DNA from: an uncultured Asticcacaulis sp.
GTDB taxonomy: Bacteria > Pseudomonadota > Alphaproteobacteria > Caulobacterales > Caulobacteraceae
Length of the DNA: 13,429 bases
Assembly: GCA_946480525.1 (NCBI GenBank)
Contig: CAMLLA010000074.1
Coordinates: 1-13,429 of the forward strand
Reading direction: 5' to 3'
A program made the position numbers and the translations under genes. The notes below the pieces were generated by a model that had not been told where the DNA came from, did no database searches, and saw nothing but the letters and a program-made list of their open reading frames with translations. Positions 4,814 to 13,313 of this stretch are shown here, piece by piece. How positions within the stretch are numbered: the stretch's first letter is position 1; each line of letters starts with the position of its first letter.

Positions 4814-5860
4814 TCAGGCCGGGATTCGCCTGAGCGCCTTCGAACGTTGCCGCGCATCGTCCAGAATATCGGCGCGCAACCATATGCCGATATCGTGATC
4901 GTCGGGAACCAGGTGCCTGACCTTGAGCCAGGCCTGTAATTCCGCCAGGCGATCCAGGCGGTCGGGCTCGAGGCCGAGAGTTGCGCCGTCGGCCAGGTGG
5001 TCGCCATAGGCCGCCGCGGCGTCGGTCTCTTCGACCTTTCCTTCGATCGCCACGTGACGCAGCGCTTCCTTCGGAAAGCTTTCCGCCCATGGTGCCGCCT
5101 GAAGCAGGATGTTGAGGATACGCGCCACGACCTCGGGATTGGCCTCGATGAACGGCTCGTCCGCCGTGACCGCACGCAGTTCGACAAGCCCCGCCAGCCT
5201 GGGCTGGCTGCGGATATCGTCGGCGGTAAACCGGTGCACTTCATGCAAATGCGCCGACCGCGCCAGTTCCAGGCCTTTTGCGCCAAAGAGGATGGCTACG
5301 TCGGCATGGCCGCTCAGCAGCGCCTCGACCTCGCGGCGCGCTATGTCGCCGAAAGGAACCGACGGATGATCGGCGACCACGGGTGCGAATTCGATATCGT
5401 GCAGGGAGATGCCGCTGACCTTAAGCACCGTGTCCCATGCCCGGAGTGTCCGTACCTGCGCCGGAGAAAAATTTCCGGCCTCCTTCGGCAGGGACAGACG
5501 GCGTCCGATCAGATCGCGCAAATCAGACACCTGCGCCCTTGGCCGCGTTACGACGCTCACCGAGTGCCAGGTTTCGCCCAGGGCGACCAATCGCGACCGA
5601 CCATTCAAGCCGTGCGCCCACAGCGCCGTGGCGGCATCCGCTTCGCGGATCAGGTTGGACAGGCTGTGGTCGAGATGGCCCTGCCGGACCGACGGCGTAT
5701 CGGTTTCCCGCACCGAAACCATGCGGACATTCTCGCGCAGGAATTCACGCTGAAAGACGCCCCGGTTGGCAACCAGACCCGTCGCCGTCAGCGTCGGGCA
5801 CCGCGCGTACCAGATCAGCGGGACATTGGCGGGCGTGGCAGCCTTATTGAAGAAGGACAT
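4814..5860 (-). CDS. DszB / SsuA-like periplasmic-binding-fold protein, apparently cytoplasmic
   Basis: A 348-residue protein with the bilobal fold of aliphatic-sulfonate binding proteins and the desulfinase DszB. No signal peptide or lipobox is present, unlike transporter binding proteins. The DszB catalytic residues have counterparts: C21 in WYARCP (DszB C27), H62, and R72 exactly ten residues after it (DszB H60 and R70). However, the DszB RxGG motif reads R72-E-A-D75, so the two glycines are lost. The C-terminal segment QAWLKVRHLVPDDHDIG resembles the DszB end. A sulfinate or sulfonate ligand is therefore likely; desulfinase activity is uncertain. The ATG at 5860 is chosen over that at 5893 because GGAGA lies 5 nt upstream. 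The gene diverges from an Rrf2 regulator, which suggests that the regulator controls it. No ABC permease or ATPase is adjacent. Confidence 0.78.
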   Translation of the reverse strand: MSFFNKAATPANVPLIWYARCPTLTATGLVANRGVFQREFLRENVRMVSVRETDTPSVRQGHLDHSLSNLIREADAATALWAHGLNGRSRLVALGETWHSVSVVTRPRAQVSDLRDLIGRRLSLPKEAGNFSPAQVRTLRAWDTVLKVSGISLHDIEFAPVVADHPSVPFGDIARREVEALLSGHADVAILFGAKGLELARSAHLHEVHRFTADDIRSQPRLAGLVELRAVTADEPFIEANPEVVARILNILLQAAPWAESFPKEALRHVAIEGKVEETDAAAAYGDHLADGATLGLEPDRLDRLAELQAWLKVRHLVPDDHDIGIWLRADILDDARQRSKALRRIPA

Positions 5861-5956
5861 GGGCGTCTCCGGATTGCCAGATATTCCTATCATTTAAGTG
5901 TAGATTTATCGTGCGAAAATTTCTACCTCGAAGGTTGAGAAAAAATAGCTGTTTGC

Positions 5957-6013: not shown

Positions 6014-6427
6014 ATGCTGTCCCAGCGCGCCAAGTATACTATACGTGTGATGCAGGAATTAGCCCGTGCCGGCCCGGAGCAAAGCCTGCAGGCCGGCGAA
6101 CTGGCCAGCCGCATCAAGGCGCCACAGCATTTTCTGGAAGGCATATTGCTCGATCTCAGGCGCGAAGGCCTTCTGACCTCCCGCCGAGGCCGCAGCGGCG
6201 GCTATACCCTGGCCAAGCCGGCGGATCTCATCTCCATCGCCGACCTGATCCGCCTGACGGATGGCCCCCTGGCGCTGACGACCTGCGCCAGCCGCACGGC
6301 CTATGCCCAGTGTGAAGACTGCCCGACACCGGACGACTGCGCCCTGCGCACCATTCTGGTTGCCGCCCGCGACGCCATGGCCCGCGTTCTGGAAGGCTCG
6401 ACCCTGGCCAAGCCGTTTCCGGCCTAA
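6014..6427 (+). CDS. Rrf2-family transcriptional regulator with four cysteines
   Basis: DNA-binding regulator of 137 residues. The N-terminal winged helix is clear: MLSQRAKYTIRVMQELA, a recognition region around residues 27-50, and the wing RRGRSGGYTLAKP (57-69), an Rrf2 hallmark. The sensor segment carries C91, C100, C103 and C109 (spacing C-x8-C-x2-C-x5-C). This is one cysteine more than the three of the Fe-S sensor IscR and fits either a metal/Fe-S centre or a thiol sensor. It has a good ribosome-binding site (AAGGGGA, 5997-6003). It is transcribed away from the DszB-like gene, a common layout for a local repressor. A sulfur- or cysteine-responsive role is inferred from that neighbour and from CymR, the cysteine regulator in this family. 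It ends 11 bp before the convergent receiver gene. Confidence 0.9.
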   Translation: MLSQRAKYTIRVMQELARAGPEQSLQAGELASRIKAPQHFLEGILLDLRREGLLTSRRGRSGGYTLAKPADLISIADLIRLTDGPLALTTCASRTAYAQCEDCPTPDDCALRTILVAARDAMARVLEGSTLAKPFPA

Positions 6428-6438
6428 GCCGTATTGCT

Positions 6439-6870
6439 CTAGCCGCGAGCGCCCCAGACTACGGTGCGATCCTGCGCGGTCGGCTTGGCGACCTGGTCGC
6501 CCAGCATGCGCGCGATGCGGAACAAGAGCTTGTGGTCGTCGAACGGTTTGGCGACATAGTCCTTCGCGCCCAGGCTCAGGGCCATCTGGATGTCGCCCAT
6601 GGCCTGGCGCGCCGTCAGCATCAGGACCGGAATGTCCTTATAGCGCACCGTAGCCTTCAGCCCTTGCAGGAATGAAAAGCCGTCGCGGCCAGGCAAGCCG
6701 ATATCGAGCAATATGCCGTGTGGATTGAATTCCCCGACCAGCCGCATGGCGGTATCGGCGTCATTGGCCTTGCAAGTGGTGTAACCGGCCAGGCCCAGCC
6801 GGATGGAGACCAGCTCGGCGATATCGGGATTGTCCTCGACGATCAGGATACGGCGCGTTGAATCGGTCAT
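6439..6870 (-). CDS. Single-domain response regulator (CheY-like receiver)
   Basis: A 143-residue protein consisting of one receiver domain and about 30 extra residues, with no output domain. Phosphorylation residues are complete: acidic pocket E12-D13, phospho-acceptor D56 in LLDIGLPG, T86 in LMLTA, and K108 in AKPF. It lacks the FATGUY motif of the alphaproteobacterial stress receivers (SdrG type). It starts 10 bp after the kinase stop; its ribosome-binding site (AGGAAG, 6875-6880) abuts that stop, so the two are co-transcribed and probably translationally coupled. It is most likely the phosphate acceptor of that kinase, acting by protein-protein contact or as a shuttle to a histidine phosphotransferase encoded elsewhere. 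Confidence 0.93.
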   Translation of the reverse strand: MTDSTRRILIVEDNPDIAELVSIRLGLAGYTTCKANDADTAMRLVGEFNPHGILLDIGLPGRDGFSFLQGLKATVRYKDIPVLMLTARQAMGDIQMALSLGAKDYVAKPFDDHKLLFRIARMLGDQVAKPTAQDRTVVWGARG

Positions 6871-6880
6871 GACATCTTCC

Positions 6881-9277
6881 TCATGCAGTCTTGTAGGAGG
6901 TTTCGCTGGCCATTCGGATGGCCGCCATCGGATCCAGGGCCGAGCCCGACGGAATATTGAGCCAAAGCGCCACGGCGTTCAGCAGGGTGGCGGGCATGAT
7001 CGGTTTCGTCAGCATGGCATTCATGCCGGCCGACAGACAGGCCTGAAGGCGGGCCTCTCCGCCGGCGGCGGTCAGGCCGAGCAGAGGCGTGTCGGCATTG
7101 AACGGGCAGCCGCCACGGATGGCGCGGGTGGCGGCGAAACCATCCATCACCGGCATATTGATATCCATCAGGATCAGGTCATAGGGCGCGCGCTGGCTGG
7201 CCTGAACCGCGTCATAGCCGTTGGCGGCGACCTCTATCTCGTGACCATAGGGCGTCAGCAGGTTGACAAGCAGGTCGGTCACCGCGTCCTGGTCGTCCAC
7301 CACCAGGATGCGGCCCGGCCGGTGCGGCACGGCGATCGGGGTCGCCTGCGCGTGGTTCATGTCGGGCAGCGGAATTTCGAACCAGAATTCGGCGCCTTCG
7401 CCCAGCACGCTGTCGACGCCGATCGTGCCGCTCATCAGTTCGATCAGCTGCTTGCAGATCGACAGGCCGAGCCCTGTGCCGCCAGGCATGTCGTGGCCGC
7501 TGCGGTCGACCTGGCTGAAGCGTTCGAACAGACGCGCCTGCCCGGCTTCGGATATCCCCGGTCCGGTGTCGCGGACGGATATGCGCAGGCGTTGAGCATC
7601 CCGCATCGAAAACTGCGACAGTGTGATGGTTACACCGCCGATCTCGGTAAACTTCACTGCGTTGCCGACCAGATTCAAAAGGACCTGATGCAGGCGTCCG
7701 TCGTCGACCAGCGCCTGTGGCGCCAGGGTGTCGGCGCCTTCGACCACGAGGCTCAGGCCTTTATTGCCTGCCTGCAGCGATAAAAGATCGACCACATCGG
7801 TCGCGATATCCGCCACCGACGCCGGGGCCAGGTCAAGCTCCAGCTGGCCGGCCTCCAGCTTGGAATGGTCGAGGATGTCGTTGATCAGGCTGAGCAGGCC
7901 CTGCCCCGCCGAATAGATGCGTTGCGAGTGGCGGCGAAGGTCTTCCCTGTCCGTCAGCAGATCACGCAGCAGGGCCGAGAACCCGATAATGCTGGTCAGG
8001 GGTGTCCGCAGTTCGTGGCTCATCGTCGCCAGGAACTGGGCCTTGGCCTCGGCGGCGGCGTTGGCCTCTATGCTGGCGCGCGCCAGGGCGTCTTCGGTTT
8101 CCTTCTGGTGCGAGATGTCGCGCACGACGTCCTGGAAGGCGGTAATCCGGTTGCCGGTGTCGTCCAGGATTGGCGACGGATGAGCTTCGACCCACAGGAC
8201 GTGACCATCCTTGTGCACGGCGCGATACCGGACACGCAGGCCCTCGTCCCATTCCCCGCCCCGGACATAGGCGCTATAGGCGGCAAAGGTCGCCTCGCAA
8301 TCTTCAGGGTGAATGACGTCTCTTACATTGCCACCGACGAGTTCCTCGGGCTGATAGCCCAGAATCTCTTTGACGGCGGGCGATATATATTCAATGCGTC
8401 CGGAAAGATCGAAGATTGTGATGATGTCGCCCGACTCATCGGCCAGCAGCCGATACCGCGCCTCGCTTTGCTCGAGCCGTTCCTGGTTGCGGACAAAGGT
8501 GGTTACATCCCGGCAGATGCCGAACAGGCCGGTAATCTCACCGCCTGGCGCACGCTCGCAAATCCCATGAGTCGTAACGATGCGGACATCGCCTTCGCGC
8601 GGGACACGCACCCGATAGGTAAAGCTGCCACCGCTGGCCAGGGCGGCATCAATGGCCTGCCGCGCATGCTGCTGGTCTTCGGGGTGATACAGGGCGATGA
8701 CCTCTTCCATGCCCGGCGGTCCGGCATTCGGATCTCGGCCGAAAATGCTGTAAACCTCTGCCGACCATTGCGTTTCACCGGTTGCCAGCATCCACGACCA
8801 GTGACCGACATTGGCCAGCTTTTCCGCCATCTGGAGGTAATCACGGTACTGGCGCAACTCACGCCGGGCACGCAGTTGTTCCTGCTCGAACATCCGGCGC
8901 TCCCTGGCCGGAAACAGGGCGATATGAGTAAGGACCTTCGCGCCTTCGGCCCCGGCCTGTCGCGCGCTCAACAGGACCGCCATGCTGGTACCATCGGCGA
9001 TCTGCAGGTCCAGCGACACTTCCTGTACTTTTCCGGCCAGCGCAAGTTGCGGGACCACACGCGCCTTGAAAATGAAGAAGGACGCCCGTGTCAGAAAGCT
9101 GCCGATATTGGCGGAATCCAGGGCGCCGGGTTCGACTCCGGCCATTTCACAAAAGCCGGAATTGGCCCGAACAATACGTCCGGCGTCATCGCAGACGACG
9201 AGGCCACACGGGCTGAGGTCGAACAGTTCGGCGGCGGTGGCGGCCTCACCGGCACGGACGACGGCGTTCAGGGTCAT
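6881..9277 (-). CDS. Soluble hybrid histidine kinase: RsbP-like PAS, two more PAS, HisKA, HATPase, receiver
   Basis: A 798-residue cytoplasmic kinase with no membrane segment. PAS1 (about 15-125) resembles the PAS of Bacillus RsbP: SPCGLVV near 22-28, the helix VVPQLALAGKVQEVSLDL at 74-91, DGTSMAVL at 95-102, and PARERRMFEQEQL leading into a helical linker. PAS2 (about 160-262) and PAS3 (about 275-390, HKDGHVLWVEAHPSP) follow. The kinase core has H421 in MSHELRTP, N539 in the N box, DTGPG (570-574) and GGTGLGLS (599-606). The receiver (about 656-775) has D661/D662, D705, T736 and K758. There is no HPt domain. The hydrolase stop overlaps the start (TGATG). ATG at 9277 is preferred to GTG at 9280, as AAGG lies 7 nt upstream. 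Context says that the partner hydrolase supplies the signal sensed by PAS1. Confidence 0.93.
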   Translation of the reverse strand: MTLNAVVRAGEAATAAELFDLSPCGLVVCDDAGRIVRANSGFCEMAGVEPGALDSANIGSFLTRASFFIFKARVVPQLALAGKVQEVSLDLQIADGTSMAVLLSARQAGAEGAKVLTHIALFPARERRMFEQEQLRARRELRQYRDYLQMAEKLANVGHWSWMLATGETQWSAEVYSIFGRDPNAGPPGMEEVIALYHPEDQQHARQAIDAALASGGSFTYRVRVPREGDVRIVTTHGICERAPGGEITGLFGICRDVTTFVRNQERLEQSEARYRLLADESGDIITIFDLSGRIEYISPAVKEILGYQPEELVGGNVRDVIHPEDCEATFAAYSAYVRGGEWDEGLRVRYRAVHKDGHVLWVEAHPSPILDDTGNRITAFQDVVRDISHQKETEDALARASIEANAAAEAKAQFLATMSHELRTPLTSIIGFSALLRDLLTDREDLRRHSQRIYSAGQGLLSLINDILDHSKLEAGQLELDLAPASVADIATDVVDLLSLQAGNKGLSLVVEGADTLAPQALVDDGRLHQVLLNLVGNAVKFTEIGGVTITLSQFSMRDAQRLRISVRDTGPGISEAGQARLFERFSQVDRSGHDMPGGTGLGLSICKQLIELMSGTIGVDSVLGEGAEFWFEIPLPDMNHAQATPIAVPHRPGRILVVDDQDAVTDLLVNLLTPYGHEIEVAANGYDAVQASQRAPYDLILMDINMPVMDGFAATRAIRGGCPFNADTPLLGLTAAGGEARLQACLSAGMNAMLTKPIMPATLLNAVALWLNIPSGSALDPMAAIRMASETSYKTA

Positions 9278-10089
9278 CACGCGGCCTTTTGCGAGGTTTG
9301 ATCAAGCCATGCGAGCATGGCCAGGCGCACCCTGTCCGGGTCGCTGAGGTGCGGGTAATGACCACGGGTATCCAGGATGACACGATCGCTGCCGGCAATG
9401 TGCGCCTCCATGTACTCCCCGACCTGGGGAGGGGAGATGATGTCGTCCTGGCACTGCATGATCAGGGTCGGAGTGACTACGGCGGCGAGGTCGGCGCGAT
9501 GGTCCGACAGAAAGATGACCCTGGCGAAATCGTGCATGACGTCGGCATCGTTGGCGACGAAGTAGCTTTCGAGCTCGGCCGTCAGTTCCGGCCGGTCGGC
9601 ATTGGCCATGACCAGTGGCGCCAGATAGGACGACCAGCCCTGCAACGACATTTCCAGAAATGCCAGAAGTTCCTCGATGCCGGCCCGGTCGAAACCGCCC
9701 TGATAGTCGTCCAGATTGAAATAGCAGGGCGACGCCCCCAGCACCATGATACTGTCGAACAGGTCGGGCCGCTTGCCGGCGGCGAGAAGCATGATCATGC
9801 CGCCGACGCTGTGGCCGATGGCGTCGACGCGGCTCAGCCCGCATCCCTCAAGAACTTCGATGAAGTCGTCGGCATAGGCGTGGAGCGTGGCGTAGCGGGC
9901 ACGGTCATAGGCGTTGCGATCGGACCTGCCGGCGCCGACATGGTCGAACGTGACGACCTGACGATCGCGCTCGAAATGCTCGGCGATATGACGCCACATG
10001 GTCTGGTCGCAACCATAACCGTGCAGGAAAACGATCGGCTTGCCGCCGGCGCCGCGGATATTGACGGCATTTCTTCTGATCACGGACAT
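9277..10089 (-). CDS. rsbQ: RsbQ-like alpha/beta hydrolase
   Basis: A 270-residue soluble alpha/beta hydrolase very close to Bacillus RsbQ in length and motifs: MSVIRRNAVNIRG at the start, HGYGCDQTMW (23-32), FDHVGAGRSD (48-57), the nucleophile elbow GHSVGG with S94, SPCYFN (120-125), RPEL..ELESYF (166-177), SDHRADL (195-201), acid D216 in QCQDDIISP, and base H244 in RGHYPHLSD. The catalytic triad is intact. RsbQ is also the bacterial relative of the plant receptors KAI2 and D14. In Bacillus, RsbQ acts with the PAS domain of RsbP to signal energy stress, probably by producing or handling a small hydrophobic ligand. Here the gene precedes, and overlaps the start of, a kinase with an RsbP-like PAS. 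The Shine-Dalgarno before the ATG at 10089 is weak. Alternative: a generic esterase; the context argues against this. Confidence 0.92.
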   Translation of the reverse strand: MSVIRRNAVNIRGAGGKPIVFLHGYGCDQTMWRHIAEHFERDRQVVTFDHVGAGRSDRNAYDRARYATLHAYADDFIEVLEGCGLSRVDAIGHSVGGMIMLLAAGKRPDLFDSIMVLGASPCYFNLDDYQGGFDRAGIEELLAFLEMSLQGWSSYLAPLVMANADRPELTAELESYFVANDADVMHDFARVIFLSDHRADLAAVVTPTLIMQCQDDIISPPQVGEYMEAHIAGSDRVILDTRGHYPHLSDPDRVRLAMLAWLDQTSQKAA

Positions 10090-10195: not shown

Positions 10196-10969
10196 TTAAT
10201 ACCCCGTCCGGCGCGACAAAGTATTGCGCTTGTCGCGCAGCCTCTGCCGCAGGGTTTCCATTTCAGCTGTTTCCGTCGCAACCAGCAAATATTCCCGCAC
10301 CTGCTCCAGGTGATGACGCATGGCGGCGCGGGCAGCGGCCGGGTCACGGCTGGCCAGGGCCCTGACGATCTGACGATGCTCATCGATGCGTGCGGCGCGG
10401 CCGCCGCCCTGGGCGCGTGTCATGATCTGCGATGCCAGCTTCGAGCGCGTACGCAGGTCCCACAGGTGATCGATCGTGTCGATCAGCGCGCTGTTGTCGG
10501 TGATGCCTGCCAGGTAGTCATGGAATTCACGATCGGCCTGTTCGCACTCGATTTCGCTGCCCCGGACCATACGTTCGATCAGTGCATCCAGCGCGCTGAT
10601 GTCCGCATCGGTGACGGCAGCGGCGGCAACGGCCGCGGTTTCGCCTTCGATGATAATGCGCGCTTCGATCAGTTCGAACGCGCCGACATCAAGATCTTCG
10701 CGAGACGCACCGCCTTCACTGTTGTTGCCGTTCGTTTCCGGTTCGATGACGTAGATGCCGGACCCGTGACGGATTTCGACCACGCCGTAGATTTCAAGGG
10801 CGATCATGGCCTCGCGCACGGTCGGGCGGCTGACTTCGAAGGTCTCGGCCAGCTCGCGTTCCGCCGGAAGCTTGTCGCCAACGGCGTATGTTCCGTTGCG
10901 GATGGCTTCGACGAGTTCGTCGGCGACGCGACGATAAAGGCGGACACTCTTGTTGGACGTGAGTTGCAT
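10196..10969 (-). CDS. GntR-family regulator, FadR subfamily (UxuR/ExuR-like)
   Basis: A 257-residue repressor-type protein. The winged helix spans about residues 8-77, with VGDKLPAERELAETFEVSRPTVREAM (30-55) and wing IRHGSGIYV (66-74), the standard GntR motif. A hydrophilic linker (78-92) leads to an FCD effector domain (about 95-230). D146, H150, H198 and H220 match the metal-binding tetrad of FCD domains, which usually bind a carboxylated ligand. Length and layout equal those of E. coli UxuR and ExuR, the hexuronate repressors. It lies downstream of the alpha-glucuronidase on the same strand, so glucuronate or a metabolite is the expected inducer (inference). AGGA is 4 nt before the ATG. 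The 124-bp gap to the upstream gene holds its own likely operator, so it may be autoregulated. Confidence 0.92.
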   Translation of the reverse strand: MQLTSNKSVRLYRRVADELVEAIRNGTYAVGDKLPAERELAETFEVSRPTVREAMIALEIYGVVEIRHGSGIYVIEPETNGNNSEGGASREDLDVGAFELIEARIIIEGETAAVAAAAVTDADISALDALIERMVRGSEIECEQADREFHDYLAGITDNSALIDTIDHLWDLRTRSKLASQIMTRAQGGGRAARIDEHRQIVRALASRDPAAARAAMRHHLEQVREYLLVATETAEMETLRQRLRDKRNTLSRRTGY

Positions 10970-11093: not shown

Positions 11094-13253
11094 TCAACCC
11101 TTGCCCGGCGCATAGGGAAATTCCAGCGACATATAGTATTCGAGCGGCCTTGCGGGTTCCGCCTCGCCCGCGGGCAATGGCAAGCCGGACTTAGAGCGGA
11201 ACCACGCGATCGAAGCGTCGCGCCACCACTGCGCCTCCTTTTCCTGAATGATCAGGTTCGAGGAAACGGCGCGGAAACGCTGCGGATCGACATAGGCTTC
11301 CAGCCCCGTCCAGGTGCGCCGCATACCCGCCACCTCCCTGACACCTTCGCCACAGGTGACGGCGAGGCTGTCCCACAGGGTCCGGCCGTCCGGCATCTTC
11401 CACGTCCACGGCACGTGGTGAAACCACAAAAGGTACTTCGGATCGATTGTTTTCGGGTCGAGCCACTGCCTGGCCGCGCCCGGCGCATATTGCGCCAGGG
11501 CATTGCTGCCGGTCCTTGTCCGGTCGAAGCCGATCCCTTTGGCGTCGGCCTTTGCATAATAGCAGGGGTTCCACTCCGGCCGGCTGAGGTCGCAGACCCA
11601 CGGTCCCGGCCCATAGTGATGCCCGGTGGCCATCTGGTGATGCAGGCCCAGCGGCGTCATGTACTTCACGACCGTCTCACGCGACGCCATCATCATATCG
11701 ACGACAGGCGCGACAAAGGCCGGGTCGTTGCTCCAGGTCATCTTCGTCCAGTCGGCGGCGATGTCGCGGCTGGAGGCGCCGGGATTCCACGCCAGGCGGC
11801 CGAAGCCATACCAATCGGCCTGGTTGAAGTCCGATCCCGTCCAGTCGCGGTCGTCACCGATATTGGCGACACCGGCCATCCCCGTCAGAGGCGTTGCTTC
11901 CAGCACGTCGGCGACTGTCAGCTTTTTTGACTTCTTTCGATCCTGGCCCCTGCCCTGGAACGTATCGGCGTCGAGCACCTCTTCGTACAGGGCTGTCGAA
12001 TAGACGAGATGCGTCGCCTGCCCCAGATATTCCTTGGTCAGCTGCACTTCCAGCATCTGGTTGGTTTTCGGCATGGCGCCGAACAACGGATGGAAGGGTT
12101 CGCGGGGCTGGAAGTCGATGGCGCCGTTCTTGATCTGCAGAAGGACGTTCGGCGCGAATGCGCCGTCAAGCGGCTGAAGCTCGCTGTAGGCCTGCTTGGC
12201 GCGGTCGTCGGCATCGTGTTCCGAGTAGATGAAGGCCCTCCACATGACGATGCCGCCGTGCGGCTTCAACGCTTCGGCCAGCATGTTGGCGCCGTCGGCG
12301 TGGCTGCGCTTGTAATCGCCGGGTCCCGGCTGGCCTTCCGAATTGGCCTTGACCAGAAAACCGCCGAAATCGGGAATGGTGGCGTAGGTTTCGTCGGCCT
12401 TGGCCTTCCACCACGCCCTGACGCAAGGGTCGAGCGGATCGGCGGTCGGGCAGCCCTTCAGCTCCATCGGGGCCGAAAAGCGCGCCGACAGGTACACCTT
12501 CATGCCGTAGGGCCGCAGGACCTGGGCGACCGCCGCCGCCTTGGCAAGATAGGGCGCGGTCAGGCTGACGGCCTTCGAGTTGACGTTGTTGAGCACCGCG
12601 CCATTGATGCCGACCGAGGCATTGGCGCGGGCATAGTCCGTATACCGGTCATCGACCAGATCCGGTAACCGCCACCAGTCCCAGATGGAATCGCCGGCAT
12701 AGCCGCGTTCGACGTGGCCATCGAGATTGTCCCAGTGGTTGAGGACACGCACCTGAAGTTTCGGCGCGTCATTGATGTCGAGTCTCGTAACCTCCCGCCG
12801 TGTCTGGATCAGGCTCAGGTAACGGAAGGCGCCATAAAGCACGCCGACATCGCTGTTGGCGGCAATGACCGTGGCCGGATGACCGTCGATGGTCACGCTG
12901 CGGATGACAAAACCCTCCTTGCCGACCGTGTCGAGCGGCAGGTTGAGACCCCTGACGATCGGAGAGCCGGCGGGTGTACCCAATACGATGGCGCCATCGG
13001 CAAGCGTGTCGACAACCGGCACATCCGCCGCCAGCATGCCTTTCAGGCCGCGCTGCAACTCAACCTCGGCCGCATCCAGCGTTGCGCCCGATCCGCCGAC
13101 GATGACGGTCGCCCCTGGCCGGTACTGGCTCTGGGCGGTCGCGTCGACAGGCCGGTACCGCAGCCACAGATCATAACCGTCTTCGGCCACGGCAGGCATT
13201 CCAGACACCAGTGACAGGGCCAGGCACAACCCGGCGGCAAGGCGAAAGCGCAT
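11094..13253 (-). CDS. aguA: Secreted GH67 alpha-glucuronidase
   Basis: Exo-acting alpha-glucuronidase of 719 residues, releasing (4-O-methyl)glucuronic acid from the non-reducing end of xylo-oligosaccharides. A signal peptide (MRFRLAAGLCLALSLVSGMPAVA, cut after A23) sends it to the periplasm or beyond. The N-terminal domain (about 25-155) is followed by the catalytic barrel starting near LNHWDNLDGHVERGYAG (171-187). GH67 catalytic residues are seen: acid E306 in KANSEGQPGP, an aspartate in the SEHDADDRAKQAY segment (D347-D350), and E385 in QIKNGAIDFQPREP. Length matches the family. The start at 13253 is set by the signal peptide and GGAGG (13259-13263), 5 nt upstream; an upstream in-frame start at 13298 would place 15 residues before the signal and is rejected. 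No other xylanolytic gene is in the window. Confidence 0.97.
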   Translation of the reverse strand: MRFRLAAGLCLALSLVSGMPAVAEDGYDLWLRYRPVDATAQSQYRPGATVIVGGSGATLDAAEVELQRGLKGMLAADVPVVDTLADGAIVLGTPAGSPIVRGLNLPLDTVGKEGFVIRSVTIDGHPATVIAANSDVGVLYGAFRYLSLIQTRREVTRLDINDAPKLQVRVLNHWDNLDGHVERGYAGDSIWDWWRLPDLVDDRYTDYARANASVGINGAVLNNVNSKAVSLTAPYLAKAAAVAQVLRPYGMKVYLSARFSAPMELKGCPTADPLDPCVRAWWKAKADETYATIPDFGGFLVKANSEGQPGPGDYKRSHADGANMLAEALKPHGGIVMWRAFIYSEHDADDRAKQAYSELQPLDGAFAPNVLLQIKNGAIDFQPREPFHPLFGAMPKTNQMLEVQLTKEYLGQATHLVYSTALYEEVLDADTFQGRGQDRKKSKKLTVADVLEATPLTGMAGVANIGDDRDWTGSDFNQADWYGFGRLAWNPGASSRDIAADWTKMTWSNDPAFVAPVVDMMMASRETVVKYMTPLGLHHQMATGHHYGPGPWVCDLSRPEWNPCYYAKADAKGIGFDRTRTGSNALAQYAPGAARQWLDPKTIDPKYLLWFHHVPWTWKMPDGRTLWDSLAVTCGEGVREVAGMRRTWTGLEAYVDPQRFRAVSSNLIIQEKEAQWWRDASIAWFRSKSGLPLPAGEAEPARPLEYYMSLEFPYAPGKG

Positions 13254-13285
13254 GAAGGCCTCCAAATATACTTGAAATTCAACAG

Positions 13286-13313
13286 ACCATAGCGACAAAA
13301 TTGGTCAGATCAA
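13286..13313 (-). promoter_or_regulatory. Possible promoter of the alpha-glucuronidase
   Basis: On the minus strand TTGATC (13313-13308), a 16-bp spacer, then TATGGT (13291-13286). The leader would be about 25 nt and contain the GGAGG site. The -35 box sits inside the candidate operator, so a bound repressor would block polymerase. Confidence 0.35.

What the first reader, a model, noticed from the sequence alone, without database searches (positions are those of the whole stretch)
6439..10089. RsbQ hydrolase wired to a PAS hybrid kinase instead of a PP2C phosphatase
The three genes overlap or nearly touch (TGATG overlap, then a 10-bp gap). The hydrolase keeps the RsbQ triad and signature segments, and the kinase's first PAS matches the RsbP PAS in several places (PCG, the PxLxLxxxxxEVxLxL helix, the PxRxRxxxE exit into a coil). 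In Bacillus that pair controls a PP2C phosphatase and sigma-B. Here the same input pair apparently controls a soluble phosphorelay, suggesting a modular hydrolase-PAS sensor related in principle to KAI2/D14 signalling. The ligand and the output are unknown.
Basis: partly seen in the sequence, partly recalled or inferred. Interest (0 to 1): 0.78.

Follow-up and report, generated by a model that had tools for sequence, protein, structure and literature searches.

The report
RsbQ–PAS sensor wired to hybrid kinase
Three touching bacterial genes encode an RsbQ-type hydrolase, a sensor kinase carrying the PAS domain that goes with it, and a receiver protein; this is a new example of a sensing module described in 2011, with a changed contact helix as its one unusual feature.

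Summary
The minus strand carries an RsbQ-type hydrolase (9277-10089; best solved relative B. subtilis RsbQ, E 1.2e-72), a soluble PAS-PAS-PAS-HisKA-HATPase-REC hybrid kinase (6881-9277) and a single-domain response regulator (6439-6870). A profile of ten RsbQ-partnered PAS domains from outside this family scores PAS1 at 74.4 bits, PAS2/PAS3 below zero, and non-partner frames in the same loci at most 10.6. Of 61 distinct RsbQ-like loci examined (window included), 49 have such a PAS gene next door. The reading is not new: Nadezhdin et al. 2011 (PMC3183031) described this bipartite module with phosphatase, histidine kinase (including hybrid) and diguanylate cyclase outputs. Unusual here is the PAS Fα helix: of four positions whose alanine mutants are null in B. 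subtilis RsbP, L48 and E72 are kept, but F55 and Y59 (both also affecting RsbQ binding) are Ile and Arg. Canonical residues at both occur in 14 of 19 partnered PAS domains outside the family survey, but in 7 of 30 within it (window included). The contact may be rewired in this lineage, or partly lost. Ligand and target remain unknown. New member of a known kind.

The parts
9277..10089 (-). RsbQ-type alpha/beta hydrolase, 270 aa, triad S94/D216/H244
   Evidence: Best solved relative RsbQ 1wom E 1.2e-72, then Olei00960, KAI2-like and D14/DAD2; Pfam Abhydrolase_1; 81% identical to the copy in Asticcacaulis solisilvae L001
6881..9277 (-). Cytoplasmic hybrid histidine kinase, 798 aa from ATG (799 from GTG at 9280): PAS1-PAS2-PAS3-HisKA-HATPase-REC
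8858..9241 (-). PAS1, RsbP-PAS-like domain, most N-terminal, ends FPARERR instead of a DIT motif
   Evidence: 74.4 bits, residues 14-141 of the 799-aa frame; alignment; end motif
9041..9082 (-). Approximate F-alpha region of PAS1 (SFFIFKARVVPQLA) with changed positions: F55 is I, Y59 is R (B. subtilis numbering transferred by alignment)
   Evidence: coordinates; functional roles
8486..8833 (-). PAS2 (approximate limits), generic PAS
   Evidence: PAS_3 E 4.5e-11 when scanned alone; no score with the RsbP-PAS profile
8111..8458 (-). PAS3, generic S-box PAS
   Evidence: PAS_3 and TIGR00229 sensory_box
7847..8047 (-). HisKA with H-box MSHELRTP; phospho-acceptor His 421 of the 798-aa form, codon 8015-8017
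7364..7705 (-). HATPase_c
6971..7309 (-). C-terminal receiver domain (REC) of the hybrid kinase
6439..6870 (-). Single-domain response regulator, 143 aa, no output domain
   Evidence: a receiver gene follows the kinase in L001 and L002 too

Best explanation
This is an RsbQ-PAS bipartite sensing module whose output is a soluble histidine-kinase phosphorelay. The hydrolase binds, and probably slowly hydrolyses, a still unknown small molecule and reports this to PAS1 of the kinase by direct contact (contact inferred from B. subtilis RsbQ-RsbP). PAS1 changes the kinase dimer through the helical linker, PAS2 and PAS3; phosphate passes from His421 to the kinase's own REC and, directly or through an unlinked phosphotransferase, to the single-domain response regulator encoded next door, which acts by protein contact. 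Shown here: gene order, domain anatomy, aligned triad, RsbP-type identity of PAS1, recurrent pairing. Inferred: contact, direction of regulation, phosphoryl route. Unknown: ligand and final target.
For: RsbQ identity. PAS1 scores 74.4 bits against at most 10.6 for non-partner frames and below zero for PAS2/PAS3; 68.3 bits with a profile of phosphatase-fused members only, non-partners at most 14.0. 49 of 61 distinct RsbQ-like loci, window included, have a same-strand RsbP-PAS-like gene next door. RsbQ and PAS1 distances correlate over 46 of 49 pairs (Pearson 0.76, Spearman 0.59; 0 of 2000 permutations as high as the Pearson value). Gene triple kept in L001 and, with an interrupted kinase frame, in L002. 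Published precedent with hybrid kinases and extra PAS domains, and two-hybrid/pull-down evidence for contact in B. subtilis.
Against: F55 and Y59, both needed in B. subtilis, are I and R here, and P86 is A, so contact through F-alpha may differ or be weak. 12 of 61 loci had no partner detected; 10 of them have room on the contig and no PAS gene reaching the threshold, so RsbQ homologues do not always sit beside one. The distance correlation does not remove shared ancestry. A receiver-only gene right after the kinase is seen in 9 of the 49 paired loci, so it is not a general part of the module. I found no experiment on this pair.
Confidence: 0.82

Rival explanations
1. The hydrolase is an enzyme that makes a product delivered to the PAS1 pocket, and PAS1 is the true sensor (Model 1 of Nadezhdin et al.), rather than the hydrolase being the receptor (Model 2). 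This is a rival only about which partner senses.
For: Triad kept by alignment; in B. subtilis triad mutants are null (discussion read); PAS folds can hold ligands.
Against: KAI2/D14, relatives by sequence, act as receptors (recalled); no ligand or cofactor had been found with RsbP-PAS by 2011 (passage).
Confidence: 0.35
2. The contact has been lost or is vestigial: the kinase now responds mainly through PAS2/PAS3, and the hydrolase is kept in the operon for another reason.
For: Two null-type F-alpha positions and P86 are changed; extra PAS domains are present.
Against: L48 and E72, the other two null positions, are kept, as are C10 and P62; hydrolase and PAS1 stay adjacent in L001 and L002; the distances go together.
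Confidence: 0.12
3. Chance neighbourhood: an ordinary metabolic esterase beside an unrelated sensor kinase.
For: The hydrolase belongs to a very large superfamily, and 10 RsbQ-like genes with room on the contig have no PAS gene reaching the threshold.
Against: RsbQ is the best solved relative; the PAS profile results and 49 of 61 co-occurrence.
Confidence: 0.02

Closest known systems
RsbQ-PAS bipartite sensing module, histidine-kinase class (Nadezhdin, Brody and Price 2011, PMC3183031)
   Same: RsbQ gene immediately upstream; RsbP-like PAS most N-terminal; kinase output; hybrid kinases and additional PAS domains were already recorded; no DIT motif at the end of PAS1
   Different: F-alpha positions F55, Y59 and also Q53, and P86, differ; a single-domain response regulator gene follows (in the held text 'response regulator' occurs twice, once for the fused domain and once in a reference title). 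Asticcacaulis and Caulobacter do not occur in the held text, but its figures, which carry species names, are not held
RsbQ/RsbP of Bacillus subtilis
   Same: Hydrolase with the triad and an RsbP-type PAS in adjacent genes
   Different: Output is a hybrid kinase and receiver, not a PPM/PP2C phosphatase that activates sigma-B
KAI2/D14 plant receptors
   Same: Same hydrolase family by sequence, E about 1e-36 to 3e-49; possible receptor logic
   Different: Partner is a PAS kinase; the plant F-box and repressor partners (recalled) are not part of this system
LuxP-LuxQ
   Same: Separate small-molecule binding protein that signals to PAS domains of a hybrid kinase (comparison made in PMC3183031)
   Different: Its PAS domains are periplasmic; the partner here is a hydrolase beside a cytoplasmic kinase

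Membership tests
RsbQ hydrolase | Closest solved relative is RsbQ, over nearly full length | tested here: met
   E 1.2e-72, residues 2-254 of 270
RsbQ hydrolase | Ser-Asp-His triad | tested here: met
   S94, D216, H244 by alignment
RsbQ hydrolase | Triad needed for signalling | not testable with these tools
   Needs mutants
RsbP-PAS domain | Scores with RsbQ-partnered PAS domains above unrelated PAS | tested here: met
   74.4 bits against at most 10.6; phosphatase-fused members only: 68.3 against at most 14.0; control limited to frames in these loci
RsbP-PAS domain | RsbQ gene immediately upstream and PAS most N-terminal | tested here: met
RsbP-PAS domain | No DIT motif at PAS exit | tested here: met
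   FPARERR
RsbP-PAS domain | Null-phenotype positions L48 and E72 | tested here: met
   L and E
RsbP-PAS domain | Null-phenotype F-alpha positions F55 (aromatic) and Y59 (H/Y) | tested here: not met
   I and R. A class tendency rather than an absolute: both canonical in 14 of 19 partnered PAS outside the family survey and 7 of 30 in it, window included
RsbP-PAS domain | P86 | tested here: not met
   A; P in 17 of 19 and 21 of 30
RsbP-PAS domain | Coiled coil of at least 21 residues after PAS | not tested
   No coiled-coil program was run; proteins with extra PAS are among the published exceptions
RsbP-PAS domain | Physical binding to RsbQ | not testable with these tools
   Bench only
Hybrid histidine kinase | HisKA, HATPase_c and REC with phospho-acceptor His | tested here: met

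The most novel reading that the evidence does not exclude
In this Caulobacteraceae lineage the RsbQ-PAS contact has been rebuilt: the aromatic pair of the F-alpha helix has become Ile/Arg (Val or Ile with Lys in another group of the family) with matching changes in the hydrolase, giving an insulated second channel that can run beside a canonical RsbQ-PAS kinase in the same cell, as the two modules of A. solisilvae suggest (L001 and L073).
Probability: 0.25. Interest if true: 0.45.

Novelty: new member of a known kind. Interest (0 to 1): 0.24.

Why it matters
The signal for RsbQ-PAS modules is unknown, as is the natural ligand of the related plant receptor KAI2 (abstract seen). A kinase-linked module gives a phosphorylation read-out on which ligands could be tested, and two modules with different contact helices in one genome would let the contact be dissected. 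As a kind of system it is already described.

Tried and rejected
Chance neighbourhood was rejected. A search of the window's own genome was not possible. PAS1 alone against the protein database gave four hits, the window's own and three at 78-82% identity, one of them named Asticcacaulis, so pairing was surveyed through the hydrolase. The hydrolase search itself scored only 8000 candidates, of which 511 passed 1e-40; it was not used for counts. A search of solved structures with an alignment of 11 PAS1 domains showed no match named RsbP among 33; the best was 3bwl at 3e-05 over about 50 residues. Hydrolase positions that differ between pairs with H/Y/N and with R/K/Q at PAS position 59 were listed: position 147 separates the groups most sharply and 11 of the top 25 fall at 121-190 (lid limits recalled), but shared ancestry is not removed, so this is only a hint. 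Structure prediction of the complex was considered and not run: the tool's description names no inter-domain confidence with which to judge an interface.

Limits. The B. subtilis RsbP sequence was not fetched; its numbering was carried over through C10, P62 and P86 and their spacing. Partner means a same-strand frame with a profile match at E 1e-3 and a gap of -1200 to 1500 bases; the gaps found run from -820 to 132, the large negative ones because the longest frame was taken. Output domains come from small profiles that I built from Pfam-annotated members; they missed HisKA_2, which Pfam found in all six loci concerned. The survey starts from similarity to this hydrolase; the family survey drew 299 genomes from a larger group and scored at most 8 candidates in each genome listed. 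Copies were merged when the last 200 residues of the hydrolase frame were identical. One of the 21 matches (a partial one in G012, contig 25) was not fetched and is not among the 61. L104, counted as a miss, has a downstream frame at 9.1 bits, under the threshold. In one search, three of 49 pairs were dropped (L091 truncated PAS, L010 broken hydrolase frame, L110 at an edge), one of 61 rows (L010, too short). One search was a script that failed on one pattern and was rerun.
Full report
What is there. On the minus strand three genes run hydrolase (10089-9277), hybrid kinase (9277-6881) and single-domain response regulator (6870-6439), with a TGATG overlap and a 10-base gap. Pfam gives an alpha/beta hydrolase; PAS folds, HisKA, HATPase_c and Response_reg; and Response_reg alone; PAS2 and PAS3 match PAS_3 when scanned alone. 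The kinase shows no membrane segment (highest 19-residue hydropathy 1.32). The window resembles Asticcacaulis solisilvae: its hydrolase is 81% identical to that of locus L001, where the kinase and a receiver gene follow, a GntR/FCD gene lies upstream, and frames alike to the window's Rrf2, NMT1-like and aminotransferase genes lie downstream (read from the frame lists; window genes named). Asticcacaulis is in the Caulobacteraceae.

The hydrolase. By sequence the best solved relative is B. subtilis RsbQ (E 1.2e-72), then Olei00960 (4e-59), then KAI2-like and D14/DAD2 proteins (3e-49 down to about 1e-36). The triad aligns as S94, D216, H244.

PAS1. A profile was built from ten PAS domains encoded beside RsbQ in organisms outside the Caulobacteraceae. 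It finds PAS1 at 74.4 bits (E 1.8e-21); the best other stretch of the same protein scores -1.8 bits. Among the 4163 frames of the loci (count) the highest non-partner scored 10.6 bits. Three higher rows (L105, L084, L074) are second copies of partner genes already counted, and L023/L112 (12.2 bits) is one RsbQ neighbour with a GGDEF-EAL output. A profile of four phosphatase-fused members alone gives PAS1 68.3 bits and non-partners at most 14.0. The control set is limited to proteins in these loci.

Recurrent pairing. Twenty-four loci came from the genome collection, others from the genomes of 12 of them and from 28 of 299 genomes of the family of A. solisilvae with a match at E <= 1e-35; longer stretches were fetched. 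After merging copies there are 61 distinct hydrolase loci, the window included; 49 have a same-strand RsbP-PAS-like gene next door. The 12 misses are L004, L015, L016, L017, L019, L021, L023 (the GGDEF-EAL neighbour), L024, L086 (end of contig), L101, L103 and L104 (downstream frame at 9.1 bits, under threshold). One further match, partial, was not fetched. Outputs among the partners scanned are kinase, hybrid kinase, HWE or HisKA_2 kinase, SpoIIE-type phosphatase and GGDEF-EAL. On a quick tree of 60 hydrolases the output classes, orphans included, need 18 changes at the fewest against a shuffled mean of 34.5; the four phosphatase rows are one group with support 86, under the tool's star. RsbQ and PAS1 distances correlate (Pearson 0.76, Spearman 0.59, 46 of 49 pairs; 0 of 2000 permutations as high as the Pearson value), as expected of partners but also of any two genes that travel together.

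What is already known. Nadezhdin, Brody and Price 2011 (PMC3183031; abstract, results sections 5, 6 and 7, first part of the discussion and search passages seen) report 45 adjacent RsbQ and RsbP-PAS pairs with phosphatase, histidine kinase or diguanylate cyclase outputs; three kinases carry a C-terminal receiver and five proteins have extra PAS domains. They report two-hybrid and pull-down evidence that RsbQ contacts the PAS domain and that F55A disrupts this. An eLife paper of 2025 (PMC12143880; passages) repeats the point and gives an AlphaFold2 model of the RsbP-RsbQ complex.

What is unusual. Of the positions tested in B. subtilis, L48A, F55A, Y59A and E72A were null and P86A weak; lower protein levels may have contributed for L48A and Y59A. 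The window keeps C10, L48, P62 and E72, but has Phe for Q53, Ile for F55, Arg for Y59 and Ala for P86 (numbering carried over by alignment). Aromatic 55 together with H/Y 59 occurs in 14 of 19 partnered PAS domains outside the family survey (ten of the 19 are the profile's seeds) and in 7 of 30 in it, the window included. A. solisilvae has a second module (L073) with F and H at these positions, though His at P86. This fits a rewired contact or, less likely, a decaying one. A literature search for RsbQ with Caulobacter gave one review (listing only); the other searches made listed nothing on this lineage by title, so I found no account of it in the held library, which lacks most subscription papers.

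How it most likely works. Hydrolase occupancy or turnover is reported to PAS1, passed through the linker and the other PAS domains to the kinase dimer, and then from His to REC and to the neighbouring response regulator. A receiver gene also follows the kinase in L001 and L002; in L002 the kinase frame is interrupted. It is not a general part of the module: a receiver-only gene right after the partner was seen in 9 of the 49 paired loci (window, L001, L002 and the six HisKA_2 loci), some others ending too near a contig edge to tell. Contact, direction and route are inference; ligand and target are unknown.

Verdict. The finding is real and correctly read, and belongs to a kind described in 2011. 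Its interest lies in the changed F-alpha helix and in a kinase read-out for the long-sought ligand.

Noticed in passing
L096 5287-7594, also L097, L098, L099, L100, L102: Six loci of the family survey have RsbQ beside an RsbP-PAS kinase of HisKA_2 type (all six by Pfam) with a receiver-only gene right after it. HisKA_2/HWE kinases feed the alphaproteobacterial general stress response elsewhere (recalled), so the module may reach stress sigma factors there too.
   Followed up: partly
L096 9119-12021: Near that module lie a second HisKA_2 kinase, a response regulator and a PAS-HWE kinase with an NCRLLQG stretch like that of LOV photosensor kinases (motif recalled); seen in this one locus.
   Followed up: partly
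L016, L017, L019, L021, L024: Five Duganella loci have an RsbQ-like gene with no PAS partner and a gene on the opposite strand that reads like ankyrin repeats (by eye). The genomes of L016 and L017 also hold another RsbQ with a PAS kinase beside it (L107, L108).
   Followed up: partly
L001 and L073 (one genome, G001): A. solisilvae has two RsbQ-PAS-kinase modules, one divergent like the window and one with aromatic 55 and His 59 and a receiver gene upstream.
   Followed up: partly
L002 3867-6640: The kinase gene of this Asticcacaulis metagenome-assembled genome is split into separate frames; sequence error or decay not resolved.
   Followed up: no
window 10196-10969 and 11094-13298, minus strand: A GntR/FCD regulator lies 106 bases upstream of the hydrolase, next to a GH67 alpha-glucuronidase; a GntR/FCD gene is also upstream of the module in L001. 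Possibly a glucuronate regulon unrelated to the module.
   Followed up: partly
window 4814-5893 (-) and 6014-6427 (+): An NMT1/THI5-like protein with no obvious signal peptide (by eye) lies divergent to an Rrf2 regulator; alike frames lie at the same place in L001 and L002. Its beginning recalls DszB-type desulfinases, untested.
   Followed up: no
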